IMG/VR virus record: IMGVR_UViG_3300001847_000838 | Span: 1-64,000 of that record | DNA length: 64,000 nucleotides | Reading direction: 5' to 3' (one strand) | Origin: a virus | The notes under the pieces: model-generated | What the model saw: only the letters and a program-made list of their open reading frames with translations | Databases searched by the model: none | Told to the model about the DNA's origin: nothing | In this document: positions 1 to 11,582 of the stretch, piece by piece | How positions within the stretch are numbered: the first letter of the stretch is position 1 | How the letters are laid out: every line of letters starts with the position of its first letter | Position numbers and translations under genes: made by a program

Positions 1-360
1 TTCCGCGGCTACAGCAAGGAGCGCCACGCCAGGACTGGCGGCCTCAATGCCAAGTTCCGCGAGAAGTACAACAGAGAGCACGGATCTAAGCTAAAAGCTC
101 CTGTGACTGAAAAAAAACCCTCTGGCAAACGTGCCGCTCGGAAGAAATCTTTCTGCGCTCGTATGTCCGGTGTTCCTGGCCCTACGTCTAAAGAAGGCAA
201 GCTTACTCCTAAGGGCGCTGCGCTGAAGCGCTGGCGCTGCAGCAAGTCCGAGGATATCTTCAAAGATAAGCTAGACCTGATCAAGAAGGCCGAGGAGGTC
301 TTGGACGTTGATCTTGATGACACCTTTCTTATCAATGACGAAGCTAACAGGAAGAAGTAG
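1..360 (+). CDS. DUF6321-like phage protein, 5' end cut by window
   Basis: The frame is open from base 1 to the TAG at 358-360, so the start lies outside the window. The visible residues carry the patterns GGLNAKFREKYNRE, KSFCARMSGVPG and LTPKGAALKRW, which I recognise from the small basic DUF6321 domain seen in many T4-like and marine phages; its function is not established. A lysine-rich and acidic tail (DLDDTF) follows. An internal GTG at 103 could start a shorter protein but would remove conserved residues. The next gene starts directly after this stop codon, so the two are probably co-transcribed. The domain match is from memory of the family pattern. Confidence 0.7.
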   Translation, partial: FRGYSKERHARTGGLNAKFREKYNREHGSKLKAPVTEKKPSGKRAARKKSFCARMSGVPGPTSKEGKLTPKGAALKRWRCSKSEDIFKDKLDLIKKAEEVLDVDLDDTFLINDEANRKK

Positions 361-2808
361 ATGGCGATCTTGAGCCCTCAGGAACACGAGAGCCTGATGC
401 ACGATGCCGCCCAGAAAGGTGACTGGGACGGAGCAATCGCGCATGCGAGGAGAGTTCCCAAGGCCTGGTCGCCTTTCGACAAGCTTCCGCAGTACAAGAT
501 CCCGCCCCACGCCATCGACAAGGTTCTGGACGCCTCCCCGCGGGACGACCGGGCCAACCTGCTCTTCGAGGTGGCAAGCAACCTCCATCCCGACCTTACT
601 GGCCCGCAGTTGAACAAGATCAGCGCTCTTGCTGGCGAGGATGCTTACGTAAACAAGGCTGTCAGGGAACATCCAAACTACAGCAAGGATGTCGAGGGCC
701 ACGAAGGAGAGTATGCCGCTTCCGAGTTCTGGAGATCCTATGAGAGAAGCGTGTCTCCCCACCACTTTGCCGCTATAAAGTCGATGTTGTCGGGTAAGCC
801 TGAGACTGTGTCTCACCGAGACAAAGAAGGTAGCAGCCACGGATCGAGCTACATCAGGGAAGGAAGGTTATTTGATGACAAAAAAAGTCTCATACATCTT
901 CCGGAAGATTTTTCTAAGTACAAAGCTTATGGGTACAAGACGGAAGCGGTGATACCCCACTTGCCAGCTCACGCTAGGAAGGTACAGGATCGTATCCTGA
1001 AGGATCCCGACATAGAAAAGAAGTACATAAACGGAAAGCCTCACGTGAAGGTTTATAGGGGCATTGCAGGTAGCTACGCAGACAAGGTAGCTAAGGCTGC
1101 CGGGTATGACAAGAATACGCACACCGTTAAGGATAAGGAATTGAAGATATCCGCGCTACCTTTTCATTCTTGGTCGCTTAGCCGTAACGTGGCAGAAGGA
1201 TTTGCTGATAGGGAACTTCCAGTAGAAGCTAGCGGAGAACATAAGGCTATCCTTTCTACATGGGTGCCTATAGATCACGTTTTGCACTCCGGTTTTCATA
1301 CGGTGCATCCTAGCCAGCAACACGCTCACCCCCACGAGCAAGAGCTGGTAGTGGCTCATCCGTCAGGAAGCTTTAGCGTACAAACCTCCGAAATGGAGTT
1401 TGGACATAAAGATCAACAAATCTCTAAACCAAATACGGTTAAAATAAAAAATACGTTAAACATTCCCAAAAAACTTGCCGCTTCAGAAGAAAGCAAAAAA
1501 AAGCTAACCAAACTTAAGCGTGCAGATGAAATAAATAATGTTAAATTAAAGGCTGGTATTGCACAAGAAATAAAAACAGTTGCAAGTCCAATTGCAGCAA
1601 AAAAAATAGCAATGCGTAATCTTGAAATAAACAGCAACCATTATGGTAATATACAACGTTCAGGAGTTAAAACTCCAAGTTATTTAATGAAAAATCCAAA
1701 GTTTAAACCTATATCAAAATTTATAGCTAAGGCTTATAAAGATGAAGATTTATGGCAAATTAAAGGACGTCATCAGCCAGGTTTTGCTAGGGACGTAGAC
1801 CATTCTGCTCACATAAAAGAGAACCCTGCTCCTGAAAATTATGTAAAAGCTGTGGAAGATATGTCCATCAAGATGCCAAATCTTGAGGAGGAAGGTAAGG
1901 AAGGAATATCCCCAAAGCTTGTAACCAAAGTTCCTAAGGCGTTCGACAATGAAGGAAAGCCAGCTGGAGGCTCTCATACGGTCATGATCAAGCCTTACCA
2001 CAAAGCTACCGAGCCGGGAACCGAGACCTATTCTCCGCATCCTATACATGGATGGGCAACTCTGACTACCAAAGGCCTGTTCAACGCAGCCGGTATAGGA
2101 AGCTTATCGGAGAAGGTTTCTGGGCATCACGTTCAAGGATTACCTGTTACGGTGCATCACTTTGAGGAAAACCACATGCCCCTAAAGTTTTCCAACAAAG
2201 AGATGGGGACGATCCCAGTCGATGCTAGACAGGCTCACAAAATAGCTGTTATAGATTTTTTATCTAACAATTTAGATAGGCACGCTGGTAACATGGCGTT
2301 AGAAAAAATACCTAATCAAGAAGGCTATCACAATCTGGTAGGTATTGACCACGATAGAAACTTTCAATACCAGAGAAGCCTTAACTTTATGGAGATGCCT
2401 CATTACAGAAGAAAGCTAGCCTCTCCAGAAAAACATGCAGAAGAGCATCTTTCGGATTATGAGAATCAAGGCGCAATGGTAAAACTATGGAATGCACCGT
2501 TTATAATGCACGATATAAACGATCCCGCCGTATATTCGTCTACTGCTAATTGGTGGCACGAAAATAAGGATAAGATTCAACAAGCTATGGATCATAATCT
2601 TAACCACATCAAAAATGAAGAACTAAAAAATCACATTTCAAAAAATTTTTTAGATCGTATGAACTACATGAACGAGTGGGCTAAGCAGGTAAAAGCTAAC
2701 CCTAGCGTTAAGCCTAAGGTTAAACCGGTAACCATAACGCCAGCGCCAGGACAACTTCATGCCCCTATAAGCGAACAAGAAATGGTTGCGCCAACTGATG
2801 TGGCTTGA
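361..2808 (+). CDS. ADP-ribosyltransferase / PI3-PI4-kinase-like fusion protein
   Basis: 815 residues, ATG directly after the previous stop. Residues about 225-340 show the R-S-E signature of arginine-type ADP-ribosyltransferases: R233 in VYRG, S270-W-S272 (the STS position) and E326-Q-E328 (the ExE motif). The C-terminal half looks like a PI3/PI4-kinase-fold enzyme: K544 in VMIKP, catalytic loop N637-L-D639-R-H641-A-G-N644, and a metal-binding segment I662-D-H-D665. It would therefore modify target proteins with ADP-ribose and transfer phosphate to an unknown substrate. The N-terminal 200 residues are not recognised. There is no signal peptide. Composition shifts from GC-rich (up to about 1400) to AT-rich, near the end of the ADP-ribosyltransferase part. 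It lies beside a MuF-like head gene, so delivery with the DNA is possible but inferred. Confidence 0.75.
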   Translation: MAILSPQEHESLMHDAAQKGDWDGAIAHARRVPKAWSPFDKLPQYKIPPHAIDKVLDASPRDDRANLLFEVASNLHPDLTGPQLNKISALAGEDAYVNKAVREHPNYSKDVEGHEGEYAASEFWRSYERSVSPHHFAAIKSMLSGKPETVSHRDKEGSSHGSSYIREGRLFDDKKSLIHLPEDFSKYKAYGYKTEAVIPHLPAHARKVQDRILKDPDIEKKYINGKPHVKVYRGIAGSYADKVAKAAGYDKNTHTVKDKELKISALPFHSWSLSRNVAEGFADRELPVEASGEHKAILSTWVPIDHVLHSGFHTVHPSQQHAHPHEQELVVAHPSGSFSVQTSEMEFGHKDQQISKPNTVKIKNTLNIPKKLAASEESKKKLTKLKRADEINNVKLKAGIAQEIKTVASPIAAKKIAMRNLEINSNHYGNIQRSGVKTPSYLMKNPKFKPISKFIAKAYKDEDLWQIKGRHQPGFARDVDHSAHIKENPAPENYVKAVEDMSIKMPNLEEEGKEGISPKLVTKVPKAFDNEGKPAGGSHTVMIKPYHKATEPGTETYSPHPIHGWATLTTKGLFNAAGIGSLSEKVSGHHVQGLPVTVHHFEENHMPLKFSNKEMGTIPVDARQAHKIAVIDFLSNNLDRHAGNMALEKIPNQEGYHNLVGIDHDRNFQYQRSLNFMEMPHYRRKLASPEKHAEEHLSDYENQGAMVKLWNAPFIMHDINDPAVYSSTANWWHENKDKIQQAMDHNLNHIKNEELKNHISKNFLDRMNYMNEWAKQVKANPSVKPKVKPVTITPAPGQLHAPISEQEMVAPTDVA

Positions 2809-2839: not shown

Positions 2840-3049
2840 ATGAAGCTAGTAATGAAGAGCGCATACGGCGGAAAAACTATAGAATACCCGATAAACAATC
2901 TAGAAGATCTAGCAGAGTTTCTGCAAGAGTTTCCTTCCGCTACCCATGCAGCCGTCAGCTTAGGAAAAGGAAACCTTGAGCAGATGGCCACCCTAGCAGC
3001 TAAGTATTTGTCAAGCCATCACATGGACGTTAAGTTGGTCAAGGATTAA
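2840..3049 (+). CDS. Small hypothetical protein
   Basis: 69 residues, no recognised family. The sequence looks like a compact alpha/beta domain, with a predicted strand (KLVMKSAYGG), a helix around LEDLAEFLQEF and a further helix QMATLAAKYL. It follows a near-consensus promoter that places the transcription start at or near the ATG. Its last 11 bases overlap, tail to tail, the end of the minus-strand peptidase gene, so no terminator separates the two convergent transcripts. The good promoter and the conserved-looking fold support it as a real gene. Confidence 0.6.
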   Translation: MKLVMKSAYGGKTIEYPINNLEDLAEFLQEFPSATHAAVSLGKGNLEQMATLAAKYLSSHHMDVKLVKD

Positions 3050-3476
3050 ACCAAATTGATTTGCTTTCTTTGTAGGATCCGTAAGGAACTATCTGAAAGT
3101 GACACCAGTTGGGTGTCGCAGAAAAAGCTTCCATCCAAAGACCGATCTCCTTAAGCTTGTCCTCGTTTGCCTCGCACCACTGTTGAAGTTCCTTGCTTGG
3201 ATCATATATGTCGACGGCTTGTCCAAACAAATGCTTAGACTTCATGGGTACCTTAGATTCGTCAAATACACCATCCTCAAAAGGAGCTTTTTTCTTGCTT
3301 GCCTTATCGCGATAGATTTGCAGGTGATCTTCCATAGAGCGAAGACCGGAAGTTACCTTCATGGGTCTTCCCCAACAAGCCCTAATTTTGTTAATGCGTT
3401 CCATCAAGATCTCTAAATTTGCTCTTTGTTCAGAGGTAGCCTCATCTTTCGGGTCAAGTTCCTTCATGGATATCAT
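3039..3476 (-). CDS. Peptidase M15-family zinc peptidase (endolysin or virion muralytic candidate)
   Basis: 145 residues. The pattern VTSGLRS, then S80-K-H82-L-F-G-Q-A-V-D89, then W124-C-H126, matches the M15A group (D-Ala-D-Ala carboxypeptidase / L-Ala-D-Glu peptidase fold); zinc ligands would be H82, D89 and H126. It would cut peptide cross-links of peptidoglycan. There is no signal peptide and no membrane segment, so it needs a holin or acts from the virion. The start ATG overlaps the stop of the MuF-like gene (ATGA), so it is the last gene of the head operon. No holin was recognised in the window. Lysis versus entry role cannot be told from sequence. Confidence 0.8.
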   Translation of the reverse strand: MISMKELDPKDEATSEQRANLEILMERINKIRACWGRPMKVTSGLRSMEDHLQIYRDKASKKKAPFEDGVFDESKVPMKSKHLFGQAVDIYDPSKELQQWCEANEDKLKEIGLWMEAFSATPNWCHFQIVPYGSYKESKSIWFNP

Positions 3477-4923: not shown

Positions 4924-6798
4924 TTATTGCTCTTCTTCTTTTTCGCCGATATTTCCTGGCTCATCATCTTCTTCAAGATAATCTGAAACCGCCATCTTAA
5001 GAAGTTCGAAGGCATACGGGCGAGTAGCGTAGTATGCCTTTATCGCTGTAGGGTTAGCTTGCATAAGGATGTTCATGTGCTGTATCCAGAAAGGGTCTCG
5101 ATGATACCAAAGCGTCGGATCCATCTGCGCTGCTGGATCCTCCAAAAATCCTTCCCTAAGCTCTGAAACTCTTAAGACCTTATCAGCTATGACCTGCCAC
5201 CGCTCGTTAAACGGAAAGTCTCCAGCTAAAGACTTGCCAATAGGATGCTTATCAACGTCTCCCAAAACCTCGTCCATGGTCATGTGGATAGGCATGTCTT
5301 GTTGTAATCTAAGAGACTCCTGCTCTCTACTCTGAGCGTCAAGGCCTGATAACTGTATGTAGCAGATCTGAGAAAGTTCTGGGTCAATTATAGGAAACAG
5401 TTTCTCGTTGAAGAAGGATTGAAATTTAAGAATCAACGGACGAAGGCCAGTATCGCGAGCTGCCGTAAGCTTAAACTCGTTTCCACTTTCGGAAAGCGTT
5501 TGCTGGTTTGTTCCTCTAGACAAGTGTCCGTACCCAGGTAGTTCATCTGGACTCATATTGAAGGTAGACAGTATGTTTCTAGCTACCTGATCGTAGAGAA
5601 ACTGAAACTCTCCATCTCCTGCATTTGAGGTCATTGGGATCCACATCACATCATCGGTAGGATTAACTCCAAAAACCGGTGCTCGAAAAGCGTTGTTCAC
5701 ACTATTTACCGATGCTACGAAATCTTGACGAATCTTGTTCAGGGTAGCTTGGTCGATCTCTTCCGATTTTACTACCAGCATACCCTTGGCAGCTCTGCCA
5801 TTTTGAAAATACAAGCGATTATATGCGTCTATAGAAAGGTGGGTTGTAATAGAGCTAATGCAAGTATCGATTGGAGTTACAGGATAGCCCGCGTGCTCCA
5901 CATCAGTTGATGGATAGATATTGTATACAATAAGCTCTTCATGGTTGAATGCCTGCATAGGTATACCGTCAATTGCCTGAATATAAGCGTACTCATCCTC
6001 ACTTAGTTTATTGATATCTATTTTAACGCCTGTAAGTTGTTCGAGCTTTCTGGCAGATGCTTCACGTACTGCTTGCGCTCCGTATTCGCCTTTTTTTACC
6101 GTATTATAGATTGTACCTACGTCTACGGGCCTAAACGAATGAAACTTTCTATTTGGTCCATCACTATCAAAGATAATCTCGGTAGCAAACCTACCAAAAG
6201 TAAGACCGTTTCTAGCCTGCAAATCTAAAAATTCAGAAAGTGACATTCTTTCATCTTCAGATAGACCTTGAACATTTCCACAGTTTAATAGCAACTTTTC
6301 TGCAATTCCAATTCGTTCTCGAATTTTTACCATTTGTTCAGGCTTAACGTACTGCTCAAATTCGGGTTTAAGGTTGATTTCCATACCAACGTCAAATCGG
6401 TCTCGACGTTTATGACCATGCATAGCCAAAGTATTGCCGCGTGCTCTAAGTACGGAAGCTACAAGATGGTTTTGAGTACGAATAAGTTTTAAAACATGAT
6501 CTGGAAGAAGCTTTCTTTTGGTTTTAAAAAGACCAGCATAATCAGAAACTTCAATAGGATCTTCATAGAACGCAAGTTTTACGTTCTTTTTTTGTCCGGA
6601 TCCAGAATCTATCATACCTTTAATAAGAGGCGATAAAGGGCCACCAGAACGACCTGACGCATGCTCTAAACCGCTAGTTGTAAGCGCCTGCATCAATTGT
6701 TCATCTAGATTTGGAGGATTGCCAGATAAACCTTCTGACTTCTCTACCCCTTCGAACATTATGGGTTTTTTTTCGTTCTGGTCTTTTTTATCAATCAT
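4924..6798 (-). CDS. Portal protein
   Basis: 624 residues. Composition, length and local patterns match phage portal proteins: an early segment LIRTQNHLVASVLRARGN, a middle part with NHEELIVYNIYPST (a clip/wing hallmark), a helix GRAAKGMLVVK and a later FNMSPDELPGYGHLSRGTNQQ segment typical of the region before the channel helix. It would form the dodecameric DNA channel and dock the terminase. The acidic tail (EEDDEPGNIGEKEEEQ) is common at portal C-termini. It lies downstream of the terminase gene with one structural gene between them, the expected order. Confidence 0.85.
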   Translation of the reverse strand: MIDKKDQNEKKPIMFEGVEKSEGLSGNPPNLDEQLMQALTTSGLEHASGRSGGPLSPLIKGMIDSGSGQKKNVKLAFYEDPIEVSDYAGLFKTKRKLLPDHVLKLIRTQNHLVASVLRARGNTLAMHGHKRRDRFDVGMEINLKPEFEQYVKPEQMVKIRERIGIAEKLLLNCGNVQGLSEDERMSLSEFLDLQARNGLTFGRFATEIIFDSDGPNRKFHSFRPVDVGTIYNTVKKGEYGAQAVREASARKLEQLTGVKIDINKLSEDEYAYIQAIDGIPMQAFNHEELIVYNIYPSTDVEHAGYPVTPIDTCISSITTHLSIDAYNRLYFQNGRAAKGMLVVKSEEIDQATLNKIRQDFVASVNSVNNAFRAPVFGVNPTDDVMWIPMTSNAGDGEFQFLYDQVARNILSTFNMSPDELPGYGHLSRGTNQQTLSESGNEFKLTAARDTGLRPLILKFQSFFNEKLFPIIDPELSQICYIQLSGLDAQSREQESLRLQQDMPIHMTMDEVLGDVDKHPIGKSLAGDFPFNERWQVIADKVLRVSELREGFLEDPAAQMDPTLWYHRDPFWIQHMNILMQANPTAIKAYYATRPYAFELLKMAVSDYLEEDDEPGNIGEKEEEQ

Positions 6799-7770: not shown

Positions 7771-9765
7771 CTAGAAGTCCCAAACGATCTTCTTGCTATT
7801 TTTATTATTTTCTTCAACATTTTCAATACGTTGAGTAGCCCTATTTGAGATCTCTGTAAGTATCTGTTGAGCATGGGCCTGATTCATAGGAATTGTAGGA
7901 ATTTTTTGATCAGGAATTAAAGGCTTAGACTTTTCTTCTCCTGATACCAATATTTTACCGCCTACTTTAGTTGCAAACACATTCTGTCCTATATAACGAA
8001 GGGCATCCATAACGTCAGCAAACTCTTCATCATCTGGTATAGTTGTAGGATTTCCAGCATTATCTAATATAAAGTGGTGCACTTTAAACCCAGTTAGTAA
8101 TTTAGCGTTTTGACAACGATCTTCTCCAGTTTTTGGGTCTATATCTTTAAGCACTAGCAACCGCCTCATGTTTCCTGAGTCTACTATTTGTCCTCTAATA
8201 GCTTCAATACCGCCAAGTACATCCTTTTTAAAGTCTGGAACTTTATGAGTTCTAAACCTTTTTCTCCAAGTTTTTATATTTGCAGGTGCCGCTGTATCAC
8301 AAAACCATTTATCTATACTATATTTGTCATCGATTTCTACAGCTTTAGGTAAAAACTCTGCTTCCACTTCAAGCTGTGGAGCCCCAAATGTTTCTAGTAT
8401 AAATGAATAGCCAACTTTAGTTACTGCCATAACAACTATAGTTGCCTCGTGTGTATATCCCCAATCTATACCGGCATAAATTTTAGAATCAAGACGTTTA
8501 AGCAAATTCACAAATTCTTGCATATTAGATCCGGAAACGTTTTCTCCAGTTAGCATACTAAACGCACTATCTATAGTCACAGCATTTTTTTGTTGGTCAA
8601 ATCTAGGATATACTAAACCTTTTGTGGAAGGCCTCCAGCACATTAGCTGCGCTTCCCCTTTGTCCGGAGTAACTCTTGCAAAAGATCCTATAGTACCAGA
8701 AATAGGACGATATAAATTTCTTATAGAGTTTTCTGGCTTTTGAGCTAATTGAGTTTTACATACTGAAAGCAGTTTACAGGAAAGACATCCAGGATGAGCA
8801 TTAATAGATTGATACTCAGGTTTGTCTTGCTGAGGCAAAGAATCATAGTCTTCTTTTGATAAATACTTTAAAGGAAGTTTTTTTGCTGCATAAACTGTTG
8901 TTGTTTTACCTTCAGAATCTGGTTTATAGCGTTCGGGAAAACATTTTTCGGTTATGTCCATAATATTCCATTGAAGTATCTCTTCTCCAGCCTCTTTTGC
9001 TTGATCAAGTTCTTTTTGCATTAAACCAAAAGCAAATTTTCTTGTCGATAGCTTAACAGTTATAGGAAATCTGCCATTTTCTCCTTGAGAAGGTATGAAT
9101 TTAGCTTCCTCATAAGCATTAGGGTCTCTTACTACATCGACTTCATCTATAAACATGATTGGCGTATGCTCACTGTTTGCACCAGCTATAGTGCATACAA
9201 TTACTACAAGATAAGGCTCTTTTTCTTCTGGAGTTTTAAATTGAATTTTAGTTTTTGAATCTGTCTGTTTACGCCACCCATTTGCATGAAGAAAAGGCTC
9301 AAGCTTGTTAAAAAACCCGTTAACATAACTAACGCATTTATCTGATTGTTTTTCAATAGCAGCCATATGGCTTATACTTACTTGAAAATGCAACAAAATA
9401 AGGACTTCAAGCATTGAGGCGGAAAGAGTTTTATAAGCTTCTCGTGCTGACAGCATGATATACCCTCTAACAACATCTCCAGTGTTATCTCTAACTGCCT
9501 TATAAATTGTCCACATAGCATCGAGGGGGTTGCTATTGGAATCCTCATCAACAGTATCAGAAGGAAGTTCTATCTTAAAAAAGGTTCTTACCCAATTCCG
9601 AAGATCTTCTTTATCTTGTAAAATTTCAAGCATAACCTCTGCTTTTGCACGCTCTTCTTGATCAAGTTTAAGGTAAGCCTTAACAGTAAAAGCGCGAAGG
9701 TCTGGGCGCATAATATTTATGCGCTTTTCAAATTTAGAAGTTATAAAATTGAACTGATCATTCAT
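7771..9765 (-). CDS. Terminase large subunit
   Basis: 664 residues. The N-terminal ATPase has a degenerate Walker A (SAREAYKTLSAS, residues about 106-117) and a Walker B IMFIDEVD (203-210). The C-terminal RNase H-like nuclease begins near IYAGIDWGYTHEAT, with later acidic residues in EFADVMDALRYIG. It powers DNA packaging at the portal and cuts concatemers. A Cys cluster, H-P-G-C-x2-C-x5-C near residues 327-338, lies between the two domains and may bind metal. The start overlaps the GroEL-like gene's stop (ATGA). Domain content and gene order make this call firm. Confidence 0.93.
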   Translation of the reverse strand: MNDQFNFITSKFEKRINIMRPDLRAFTVKAYLKLDQEERAKAEVMLEILQDKEDLRNWVRTFFKIELPSDTVDEDSNSNPLDAMWTIYKAVRDNTGDVVRGYIMLSAREAYKTLSASMLEVLILLHFQVSISHMAAIEKQSDKCVSYVNGFFNKLEPFLHANGWRKQTDSKTKIQFKTPEEKEPYLVVIVCTIAGANSEHTPIMFIDEVDVVRDPNAYEEAKFIPSQGENGRFPITVKLSTRKFAFGLMQKELDQAKEAGEEILQWNIMDITEKCFPERYKPDSEGKTTTVYAAKKLPLKYLSKEDYDSLPQQDKPEYQSINAHPGCLSCKLLSVCKTQLAQKPENSIRNLYRPISGTIGSFARVTPDKGEAQLMCWRPSTKGLVYPRFDQQKNAVTIDSAFSMLTGENVSGSNMQEFVNLLKRLDSKIYAGIDWGYTHEATIVVMAVTKVGYSFILETFGAPQLEVEAEFLPKAVEIDDKYSIDKWFCDTAAPANIKTWRKRFRTHKVPDFKKDVLGGIEAIRGQIVDSGNMRRLLVLKDIDPKTGEDRCQNAKLLTGFKVHHFILDNAGNPTTIPDDEEFADVMDALRYIGQNVFATKVGGKILVSGEEKSKPLIPDQKIPTIPMNQAHAQQILTEISNRATQRIENVEENNKNSKKIVWDF

Positions 9766-11528
9766 GGCCGCTCATTGGCTTCATTAACAAAACCATCAGG
9801 GTTGTTTACGGATCTTTCAAACTCGCGATCCGCCTTTGCCTCTTCGCGCTCAACTGCCTCATCTCTTGGATATGCGACAATTCCGCCAATAGTTCCCATA
9901 ACAGTAGCTATGGATGCGGCATTTTTTAATGCTTCCTCTACAGCCGGAGCAGAATCAAAAATTCCAAGCTCTTCTGGAAGGCCATATTCTTGGTTTTCTA
10001 CATCATAAACGTCATCAGGATGATCAATTAAATATTCTAATATGTCAGTTATTTCTTGTCCTCTGTAACCCGCATTGTCTAGTAAGCGATAAATTGGAAC
10101 CATCAAAGATGGACAAAGTACTTCCTTTATTACATCACTTGCTTCTGGATCAGATAAAAGCTCTGTGTTTAAATCAATCAAAGTACGGCAGCCTCCGGGG
10201 AGAACGCCTTTAGCGATAGCGCTGCGAACAGCGCATACAGCATCTTCGCATCTGTCATGTGCTTCTTTTAGCTCCCCATTAGATCCGCCATAAATAGTAA
10301 GCTTAGCGATACCATTAGTAATTTTGCCAAGGCGTTCTTCTAACCATCTTTTTTCTGCTTCTGATTCTGCAGATTCTTTTTGAGACCGAAGTTCATCGGC
10401 TCTAACTTCTACGTTTAAAGACTCAGGATCTCCTACTACTGTACTTCTAAACCGATAAGCTTCAAAGTACTCCATGCCTTTACCTAAATCTTCGGGACGA
10501 GCATCAGCCACGCGGTCCTTGATACCAAACACCTTGGCGCCAGTAAAAGCTGCCATATCAAGCAAAAATTGAAGCTGAGAGTTAATAAACTGAGCCATAG
10601 GGGTAATCATAGGCACAATATTCATCGTATTGGGATTGCCAAAATTGAAGGCTAGCTGGGTAAGGACATTATCGCTGTACCCATGAGCAAAGATAACTAA
10701 GTTGCGAAAGTCAGAGTTGCCTTCAATATAGCCTTGAGCAAGCATATTGAGAAGCTCATTAAAAGTTACTAAGTCGTTTACTTGACCATCATATAGTAAA
10801 AATAAAGGTTTTTCAAGAAAACATCGTTGGTTGCTTTGGTCGTTAATAAAAGCGGTGTGAAACTTTCCAATAGATTCTTCGTACCCGATCGGTATAGGAA
10901 ACCCCTCAATTAGACCAATTTCGTACCCGAACGGGCCAGAAATTTCCTTAATTGTAACATGGGAATTTTCTCCATACCCTACAAGCTCAAAAGCTTTAAT
11001 TACAGCATCGGCCATATCGTCATCCCCATTAGCCGATACTTTTGCTACCATGCGGAGTAGTCCTTTGTTGTCTTCTGTGATAGGTATTGCTTTTTCCCTA
11101 ATGCGTGGAACTAGATTTTTTCTTACTACTTTAGAAAGTTCTCTAGCTGCTTTTTGAGGGCTATATTTAGGGTTTTCTTTACAAAAATCATAAAGATATC
11201 CAACCATTGCCGCAGAGAGTATTGTGGCTGTAGTTGTCCCATCTCCTGCTTCTGTAGCGGTGCGTTTAGCTGCATCTCTAGCTTGCTCTATAATCAAGTG
11301 CTCATAAGAATTTGAAGATCCTAAGCTATTAAAAACCGTAACCCCATCCTTAGTATTTTTATTTGGAATACCGGGATAATCGCTTTCTAGCAAAATATTC
11401 TTTCCGCCAGGCCCATAAGTGTTTCCTACTACTTCGCTGATTTTGTTCATAGTTTCTACTACAATCTTTTCCAAAGTCTTAGGATTGGACACAAACATTT
11501 TGGGGCTTGTTTTAACTTTTCTGATCAT
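9762..11528 (-). CDS. groEL-like: GroEL-like chaperonin (phage Hsp60)
   Basis: 588 residues from the ATG at 11528, chosen because AAGGAG lies just upstream; an earlier ATG at 11567 has no such site. Equatorial-domain motifs are intact: TYGPGGKNILLES, TKDGVTV, GDGTTTAT (D96, equal to E. coli D87) and, C-terminally, CEDAVCAVRSAIAKGVLPGG with the conserved Asp. The GGM tail of bacterial GroEL is absent and replaced by a charged tail, and the protein is about 40 residues longer than the host type. It would fold phage proteins such as capsid subunits. It is the first gene of the head operon, ahead of the terminase. Confidence 0.93.
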   Translation of the reverse strand: MIRKVKTSPKMFVSNPKTLEKIVVETMNKISEVVGNTYGPGGKNILLESDYPGIPNKNTKDGVTVFNSLGSSNSYEHLIIEQARDAAKRTATEAGDGTTTATILSAAMVGYLYDFCKENPKYSPQKAARELSKVVRKNLVPRIREKAIPITEDNKGLLRMVAKVSANGDDDMADAVIKAFELVGYGENSHVTIKEISGPFGYEIGLIEGFPIPIGYEESIGKFHTAFINDQSNQRCFLEKPLFLLYDGQVNDLVTFNELLNMLAQGYIEGNSDFRNLVIFAHGYSDNVLTQLAFNFGNPNTMNIVPMITPMAQFINSQLQFLLDMAAFTGAKVFGIKDRVADARPEDLGKGMEYFEAYRFRSTVVGDPESLNVEVRADELRSQKESAESEAEKRWLEERLGKITNGIAKLTIYGGSNGELKEAHDRCEDAVCAVRSAIAKGVLPGGCRTLIDLNTELLSDPEASDVIKEVLCPSLMVPIYRLLDNAGYRGQEITDILEYLIDHPDDVYDVENQEYGLPEELGIFDSAPAVEEALKNAASIATVMGTIGGIVAYPRDEAVEREEAKADREFERSVNNPDGFVNEANERP

Positions 11529-11560
11529 GCTTTCTCCTTTTGAACCCTTTAAATACTTTA

Positions 11561-11582
11561 ATATCACAAAAGCATGTGATAT
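11561..11582. promoter_or_regulatory. 22-bp perfect inverted repeat in divergent promoter region
   Basis: Arms ATATCACA (11561-11568) and TGTGATAT (11575-11582) are perfect complements around the 6-base centre AAAGCA. It lies in the only divergent junction between the head operon and the replication block, so it is a good operator candidate. A weak promoter for the rightward gene (TATCTT at 11580-11585) overlaps one arm. Alternatively it is a transcribed hairpin. Confidence 0.5.

What the first reader, a model, noticed from the sequence alone, without database searches (positions are those of the whole stretch)
361..2808. ADP-ribosyltransferase fused to a PI3/4-kinase-like domain
Seen: R233, S270-W-S272 and E326-Q-E328 in the first half, and N-x-D-R-H-x-G-N plus I-D-H-D in the second. 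Known: phage ADP-ribosyltransferases such as T4 Alt and ModA modify host proteins. Inferred: one protein with two different post-translational activities, perhaps a host take-over effector delivered with the virion, because a MuF-like head gene is its neighbour. I know of no described phage protein with this combination.
Basis: partly seen in the sequence, partly recalled or inferred. Interest (0 to 1): 0.75.

Follow-up and report, generated by a model that had tools for sequence, protein, structure and literature searches.

The report
Phage protein joining ADP-ribosyltransferase and kinase
A large virus of bacteria carries, next to its capsid genes, one protein that combines a probable ADP-ribosyltransferase with a PI3/4-kinase-like enzyme; related viruses swap the first part for other enzymes, so it looks like one member of a mix-and-match set of proteins injected to take over the host.

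Summary
The C-terminal half (452-779) is a PI3/4-kinase/HipA-superfamily kinase-like domain. K544, N637, D639, R640, H641, N644 and D663 are invariant in 10 phage relatives (31-36% identity); several relatives pass Pfam PF00454, and the AlphaFold model matches PI4K-II-alpha (Foldseek E 6e-5). The N-terminal half (1-353) is probably an R-S-E ADP-ribosyltransferase: R233, S270-W271 and E326-Q-E328 are invariant in two distant relatives, motif and strand order fit, but Pfam, profile and fold searches were not significant. The halves occur in different proteins elsewhere, so this is a mosaic. In relatives the kinase carries GNAT, ART-PolyVal, helical or head-protease partners. The gene abuts the tail of a prohead-protease gene (TAGATG) and, with a 69-aa partner, fills a slot that is empty in two close relatives. 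Virion delivery is inferred, not shown. The claim of an undescribed combination fails in part: mycobacteriophages McProf and Onyinye already encode kinase-like plus ART proteins, although no paper found describes the kinase. Best filed as a new variant of phage polyvalent effectors.

The parts
1..360 (+). 3' end of a head maturation (prohead) protease gene, cut by the contig end; C-terminal DUF6321 tail
   Evidence: PF19846 64 bits; relative L012 has head-protease N-term (phrog_1028) plus this tail in one 654-aa protein
361..2808 (+). ART-kinase fusion protein, 815 aa; stop of the upstream gene and start ATG abut (TAGATG)
361..1419 (+). N-terminal half, residues 1-353: helical region plus R-S-E ART-like domain; R233 at 1057-1059, S270-W-S272 at 1168-1176, E326-Q-E328 at 1336-1344
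   Evidence: 40% and 36% identical to L029 and L042 proteins with these residues kept; alpha/beta order of an ART in the model
1714..2697 (+). PI3/4-kinase-like domain, residues 452-779; K544 at 1990-1992, N637-N644 at 2269-2292, I662-D665 at 2344-2355
   Evidence: PF00454, A3 alignment, PI4K-II-alpha fold match
2840..3049 (+). small 69-aa protein; same domain follows the kinase gene in seven of the relatives examined, there fused to lytic-transglycosylase-like, NUDIX or other parts
3039..3476 (-). VanY/M15 peptidase (endolysin-like), convergent
   Evidence: PF02557, PF08291
3473..4246 (-). MuF-like head protein, convergent operon
   Evidence: PF04233 26 bits, phrog_2662
4924..6798 (-). portal protein
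   Evidence: phrog_12
7771..9765 (-). terminase large subunit
   Evidence: 32% to Mx1 TerL over 89%

Best explanation
A modular bifunctional phage effector. The N-terminal ADP-ribosyltransferase and the C-terminal PI3/4-kinase/HipA-type kinase are made late, together with the head protease, taken into the prohead, and ejected with the DNA. In the new host the ART mono-ADP-ribosylates, and the kinase phosphorylates, host proteins, altering transcription, translation or defence before phage genes are expressed. Shown: the two homology modules, intact kinase catalytic residues, conserved ART motif, mosaic exchange of partners, head-gene operon. Inferred: catalysis, packaging, injection, targets.
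For: Halves match different proteins elsewhere (residues 8-353 to an ART protein at E 6e-73, residues 452-779 to GNAT-kinases at 1.5e-43 and 2.4e-24). Catalytic residues invariant in 10 kinases. PI4K-II-alpha, PI3K, HipA and CtkA fold matches. Kinase domains fused to head maturation protease in G009, G013, G014, G017 and Mx1. Start codon abuts the protease stop. Empty slot in L012 and L004. L040 holds GNAT + ART-PolyVal + kinase, all over Pfam cut-offs. McProf gp54 joins a head-protein domain, kinase-like motif and ART. Head-fused ARTs are argued to be injected in PMC5512222 and PMC9503650.
Against: No virion proteomics, no activity, no target. ART domain without a significant profile or fold match. 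Patchy occurrence: PF00454 absent from 9 of 13 records searched, many of them fragments.
Confidence: 0.55

Rival explanations
1. The kinase-like half is mainly the constant packaging or anchoring module that loads exchangeable N-terminal payload enzymes (ART, GNAT and others) into the head; the payload does the work in the host.
For: C-terminal kinase is constant while N-terminal partners vary; the same kinase superfamily is fused directly to the head protease.
Against: All catalytic residues are kept in every member, which an anchor would not need; some members have only a helical N-terminal part.
Confidence: 0.2
2. The kinase acts inside the producing cell on head proteins, regulating prohead maturation; the ART is a separate activity.
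For: Operon with, or fusion to, the head maturation protease; position in apparent connector operons.
Against: Close relatives L012 and L004 lack the gene at this place, so it is not generally needed for head assembly.
Confidence: 0.1
3. An intracellular take-over or counter-defence protein made during infection and never packaged.
For: No direct virion evidence; ART, GNAT and NUDIX enzymes also serve as free phage proteins.
Against: Head-gene context in the relatives; head-domain fusion in McProf gp54.
Confidence: 0.1
4. The N-terminal half is not an ART; R, S-W-S and E-Q-E are coincidental.
For: No Pfam, PDB-profile or significant fold match; profile comparison with phage ARTs is not significant.
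Against: Invariance in three proteins of 36-40% identity; secondary structure order; motif found only in ARTs among 503 ORFs; ART-fold proteins (PARP1, PARP4, PltA, Tne2) recur among the weak fold matches.
Confidence: 0.12

Closest known systems
Phage polyvalent proteins (Iyer et al. 2017, PMC5512222)
   Same: Large multidomain proteins encoded near head genes combining ARTs, GNATs, kinases and peptidases, proposed to be injected
   Different: The kinases described there are a distinct Ser/Thr/Tyr-type group that lost the C-lobe, mostly in phages of Verrucomicrobia-Chlamydia and Bacteroidetes; no PI3/4K-type kinase is named in that paper
McProf gp54 / Onyinye gp16, annotated ADP-ribosyltransferase (mycobacteriophages)
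   Same: One polypeptide with a PI3/4K- or HipA-like region and an ART
   Different: Order reversed (kinase then ART); ART is PF03496-positive; McProf also has a VG15 head domain; not full-length homologues of this protein
L040 protein (IMG/VR 3300020183_005033)
   Same: Same kinase subfamily, with an ART in front
   Different: ART is of the ART-PolyVal family, preceded by two GNAT-like domains, one of them over the Pfam cut-off
T4 Alt
   Same: A packaged ART acting on the host at infection is the model for the delivery proposed here (from PMC5512222 and general knowledge)
   Different: No kinase domain; no sequence match found here
Haloviral 'phosphatidylinositol kinase' (HRTV-11 gp16)
   Same: PI3/4K-like domain encoded among head-tail connector genes
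   Different: No ART found

Membership tests
PI3_PI4_kinase (PF00454) superfamily | Pfam gathering score | tested here: inconclusive
   24.4 of 27.1 bits for this protein; relatives of the same subfamily reach 27.2-40 bits, over the cut-off
PI3_PI4_kinase (PF00454) superfamily | Lys on strand 3, D-x-x-x-x-N catalytic loop, metal-binding Asp | tested here: met
   K544, D639, N644, D663 invariant in 10 sequences
PI3_PI4_kinase (PF00454) superfamily | Kinase fold | tested here: met
   PI4K-II-alpha E 5.6e-5, prob 1.00; HipA and CtkA also matched
ADP-ribosyltransferase, R-S-E clade | R, S-x-S/T and E/Q-x-E in order, conserved | tested here: met
ADP-ribosyltransferase, R-S-E clade | Profile match to known ARTs | tested here: not met
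   No Pfam or PDB match; profile-profile with 9 phage ARTs not significant, only the E-x-E strand aligned. Hence called ART-like, not filed as PF03496
ADP-ribosyltransferase, R-S-E clade | ART fold | tested here: inconclusive
   pLDDT 63 model, best Foldseek E 0.34
Phage polyvalent proteins | Several distinct effector domains in one polypeptide | tested here: met
   Two modules with separate homologues
Phage polyvalent proteins | Encoded with virion structural genes | tested here: met
Phage polyvalent proteins | Packaged and injected | not testable with these tools
   needs virion proteomics

The most novel reading that the evidence does not exclude
A PI3/4-kinase-like domain is the constant module of a widespread phage head-delivered effector platform: it is fused to the head protease or to exchangeable payloads (ART, GNAT and others), and has joined ARTs at least three separate times (this phage, the L040 phage, mycobacteriophages).
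Probability: 0.4. Interest if true: 0.75.

Novelty: new variant of a known kind. Interest (0 to 1): 0.55.

Why it matters
Injected phage enzymes act before any phage gene is expressed and are mostly untested. A recurrent PI3/4K- or HipA-like kinase tied to capsid proteases and swappable effectors would be a new general delivery or take-over module, testable in laboratory phages such as Onyinye on M. smegmatis or Mx1 on Myxococcus, whose relevant domain is partly unannotated.

Tried and rejected
Whole-protein searches in INPHARED and IMG/VR found no close relative. Bacterial genome scans with the kinase and ART profiles found none, so no host or prophage form was seen. FAM20C-like kinase considered: Pfam and PDB profile matches are weak and limited to the catalytic loop, and no FAM20C appeared among the 50 best fold matches. 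Fusion by simple joining of neighbouring genes rejected: in L020 and L042 the kinase gene lies upstream of the ART gene, so an N-terminal swap is likelier; the 69-aa partner stays downstream of the kinase. Other phage ART proteins (Sixama, Jeremy, GMA2, ObLaDi) showed no kinase motif. Promoter and terminator scan at chance level.

Full report
Observation. The window is the first 64 kb of a 121,191-base IMG/VR virus record.

Kinase half. Pfam finds PF00454 at residues 622-676, 24.4 bits, E 3.3e-5, just below the curated 27.1. A short query from this stretch found a 135-kb phage (L020), and profile scans found further phages. Ten kinase domains align, the others at 31-36% identity to the query, with K544, N637, D639, R640, H641, N644 and D663 invariant. 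Relatives exceed the Pfam cut-off. An AlphaFold model built on 13 rows gives about 75-97 pLDDT in most of the kinase core; its best solved matches are PI4K-II-alpha (E 5.6e-5), followed by PI3K, HipA and CtkA. Profile-profile comparison links four kinase groups (effector-kinases, protease-kinases, a second GNAT/ART-linked group, mycobacteriophage proteins) at probabilities of 89-98%. The domain is therefore a PI3/4K-HipA superfamily kinase-like domain with an intact active site; its substrate is unknown.

ART half. Residues 8-353 match an 870-aa protein of L020/L029 at E 6e-73 and an 853-aa protein of L042. R233, S270-W271 and E326-Q-E328 are invariant in the three; S272 is Ser or Thr. The model places R233 in a strand after a helix, the S-W-S before a helix, and E-Q-E at the start of a later strand, the order of R-S-E ARTs (general knowledge of the fold). 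However, Pfam and PDB searches found nothing, the fold search was not significant (best E 0.34), although PARP1, PARP4, PltA and Tne2 recur among the weak matches, and comparison with nine phage ARTs aligned only the E-x-E strand, without significance. A strict motif was found in 3 of 503 ORFs and 0 of 5030 shuffles; a looser one in 11 ORFs, all of them ARTs or this family, against 1.2 expected (both written with the sequences in view). I call it ART-like, about 0.85 likely.

Mosaic. The two halves occur in separate proteins of the L020 and L042 phages. The kinase domain is preceded in relatives by GNAT (G009, G011, L038), a helical region (L035, L036, L037, L041), or GNAT plus ART-PolyVal (L040, all over Pfam cut-offs). 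In G009, G013, G014, G017 and Mx1 a related kinase domain is fused to a head maturation protease.

Context. The left-edge ORF ends in DUF6321; in relative L012 this tail is the C-terminus of a 654-aa protein with head-protease similarity. Its stop and the ATG of this gene abut as TAGATG. In L012 and L004 the protease gene and the convergent portal-MuF operon meet with nothing between them, so ART-kinase plus the 69-aa partner is an insertion there, or was lost in the relatives. L038 carries a GNAT-kinase, the partner domain and a NUDIX gene facing the same MuF-portal genes. The partner domain follows the kinase gene in seven relatives examined. In L035, L036, L037, L041 and L045 the kinase gene sits between genes that look like connector and virion structural genes (function by position and appearance only).

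Precedents. Mycobacterium phage McProf gp54 (1185 aa) has a VG15 head domain, a kinase-like motif (WLVKGP, GNHDSHAGQF, GIDKG) and a PF03496 ART of 59 bits. Onyinye gp16, Leopard and Aikoy are related in the kinase-like region, and Onyinye gp16 has PF03496 at 32.6 bits. The combination is thus in GenBank with only the ART annotated. Polyvalent proteins with ARTs, GNATs and other kinases, and head-packaged ARTs, are discussed in PMC5512222 and PMC9503650; no PI3/4K-type kinase is named in PMC5512222, and two text searches for such phage kinases found no relevant paper.

Mechanism. Most likely a late, head-loaded, injected effector with two protein-modifying activities. Packaging, injection, catalysis and targets are inferred. 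The main rival is that the kinase domain is chiefly a loading module. Verdict: real, two-domain, new variant of the known polyvalent-effector kind, interest 0.55.

Noticed in passing
L040:69-3206: One 1046-aa protein with two GNAT-like domains, ART-PolyVal and PI3/4K-like kinase; GNAT, ART and kinase each pass a Pfam cut-off.
   Followed up: partly
L029:787-2781: N-terminal domain with weak similarity to S-adenosylmethionine lyases (PF23780, 21 of 28 bits), fused to GNAT and kinase; similar N-termini in L038, L042 and Mx1.
   Followed up: no
window 2840-3049: Small domain conserved downstream of the kinase genes and fused in relatives to NUDIX, lytic-transglycosylase-like or protease-like parts; could be a loading or adaptor domain.
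   Followed up: partly
L020:1-780: MuF gene appears interrupted by an intein-like insert ending VVSHN before Cys, with an endonuclease-like part.
   Followed up: no
window 9762-11567: Phage-encoded chaperonin (Cpn60, 106 bits) next to the terminase, conserved in the relatives.
   Followed up: partly
L078 (Mycobacterium phage Settecandela): A protein starting with the kinase-like region (gp220) lies a few genes after an annotated ADP-ribosyl glycohydrolase (gp216).
   Followed up: no
L063 (halovirus HRTV-11 gp16): Annotated phosphatidylinositol kinase encoded between head completion and tail completion genes: the same neighbourhood in an archaeal virus.
   Followed up: partly
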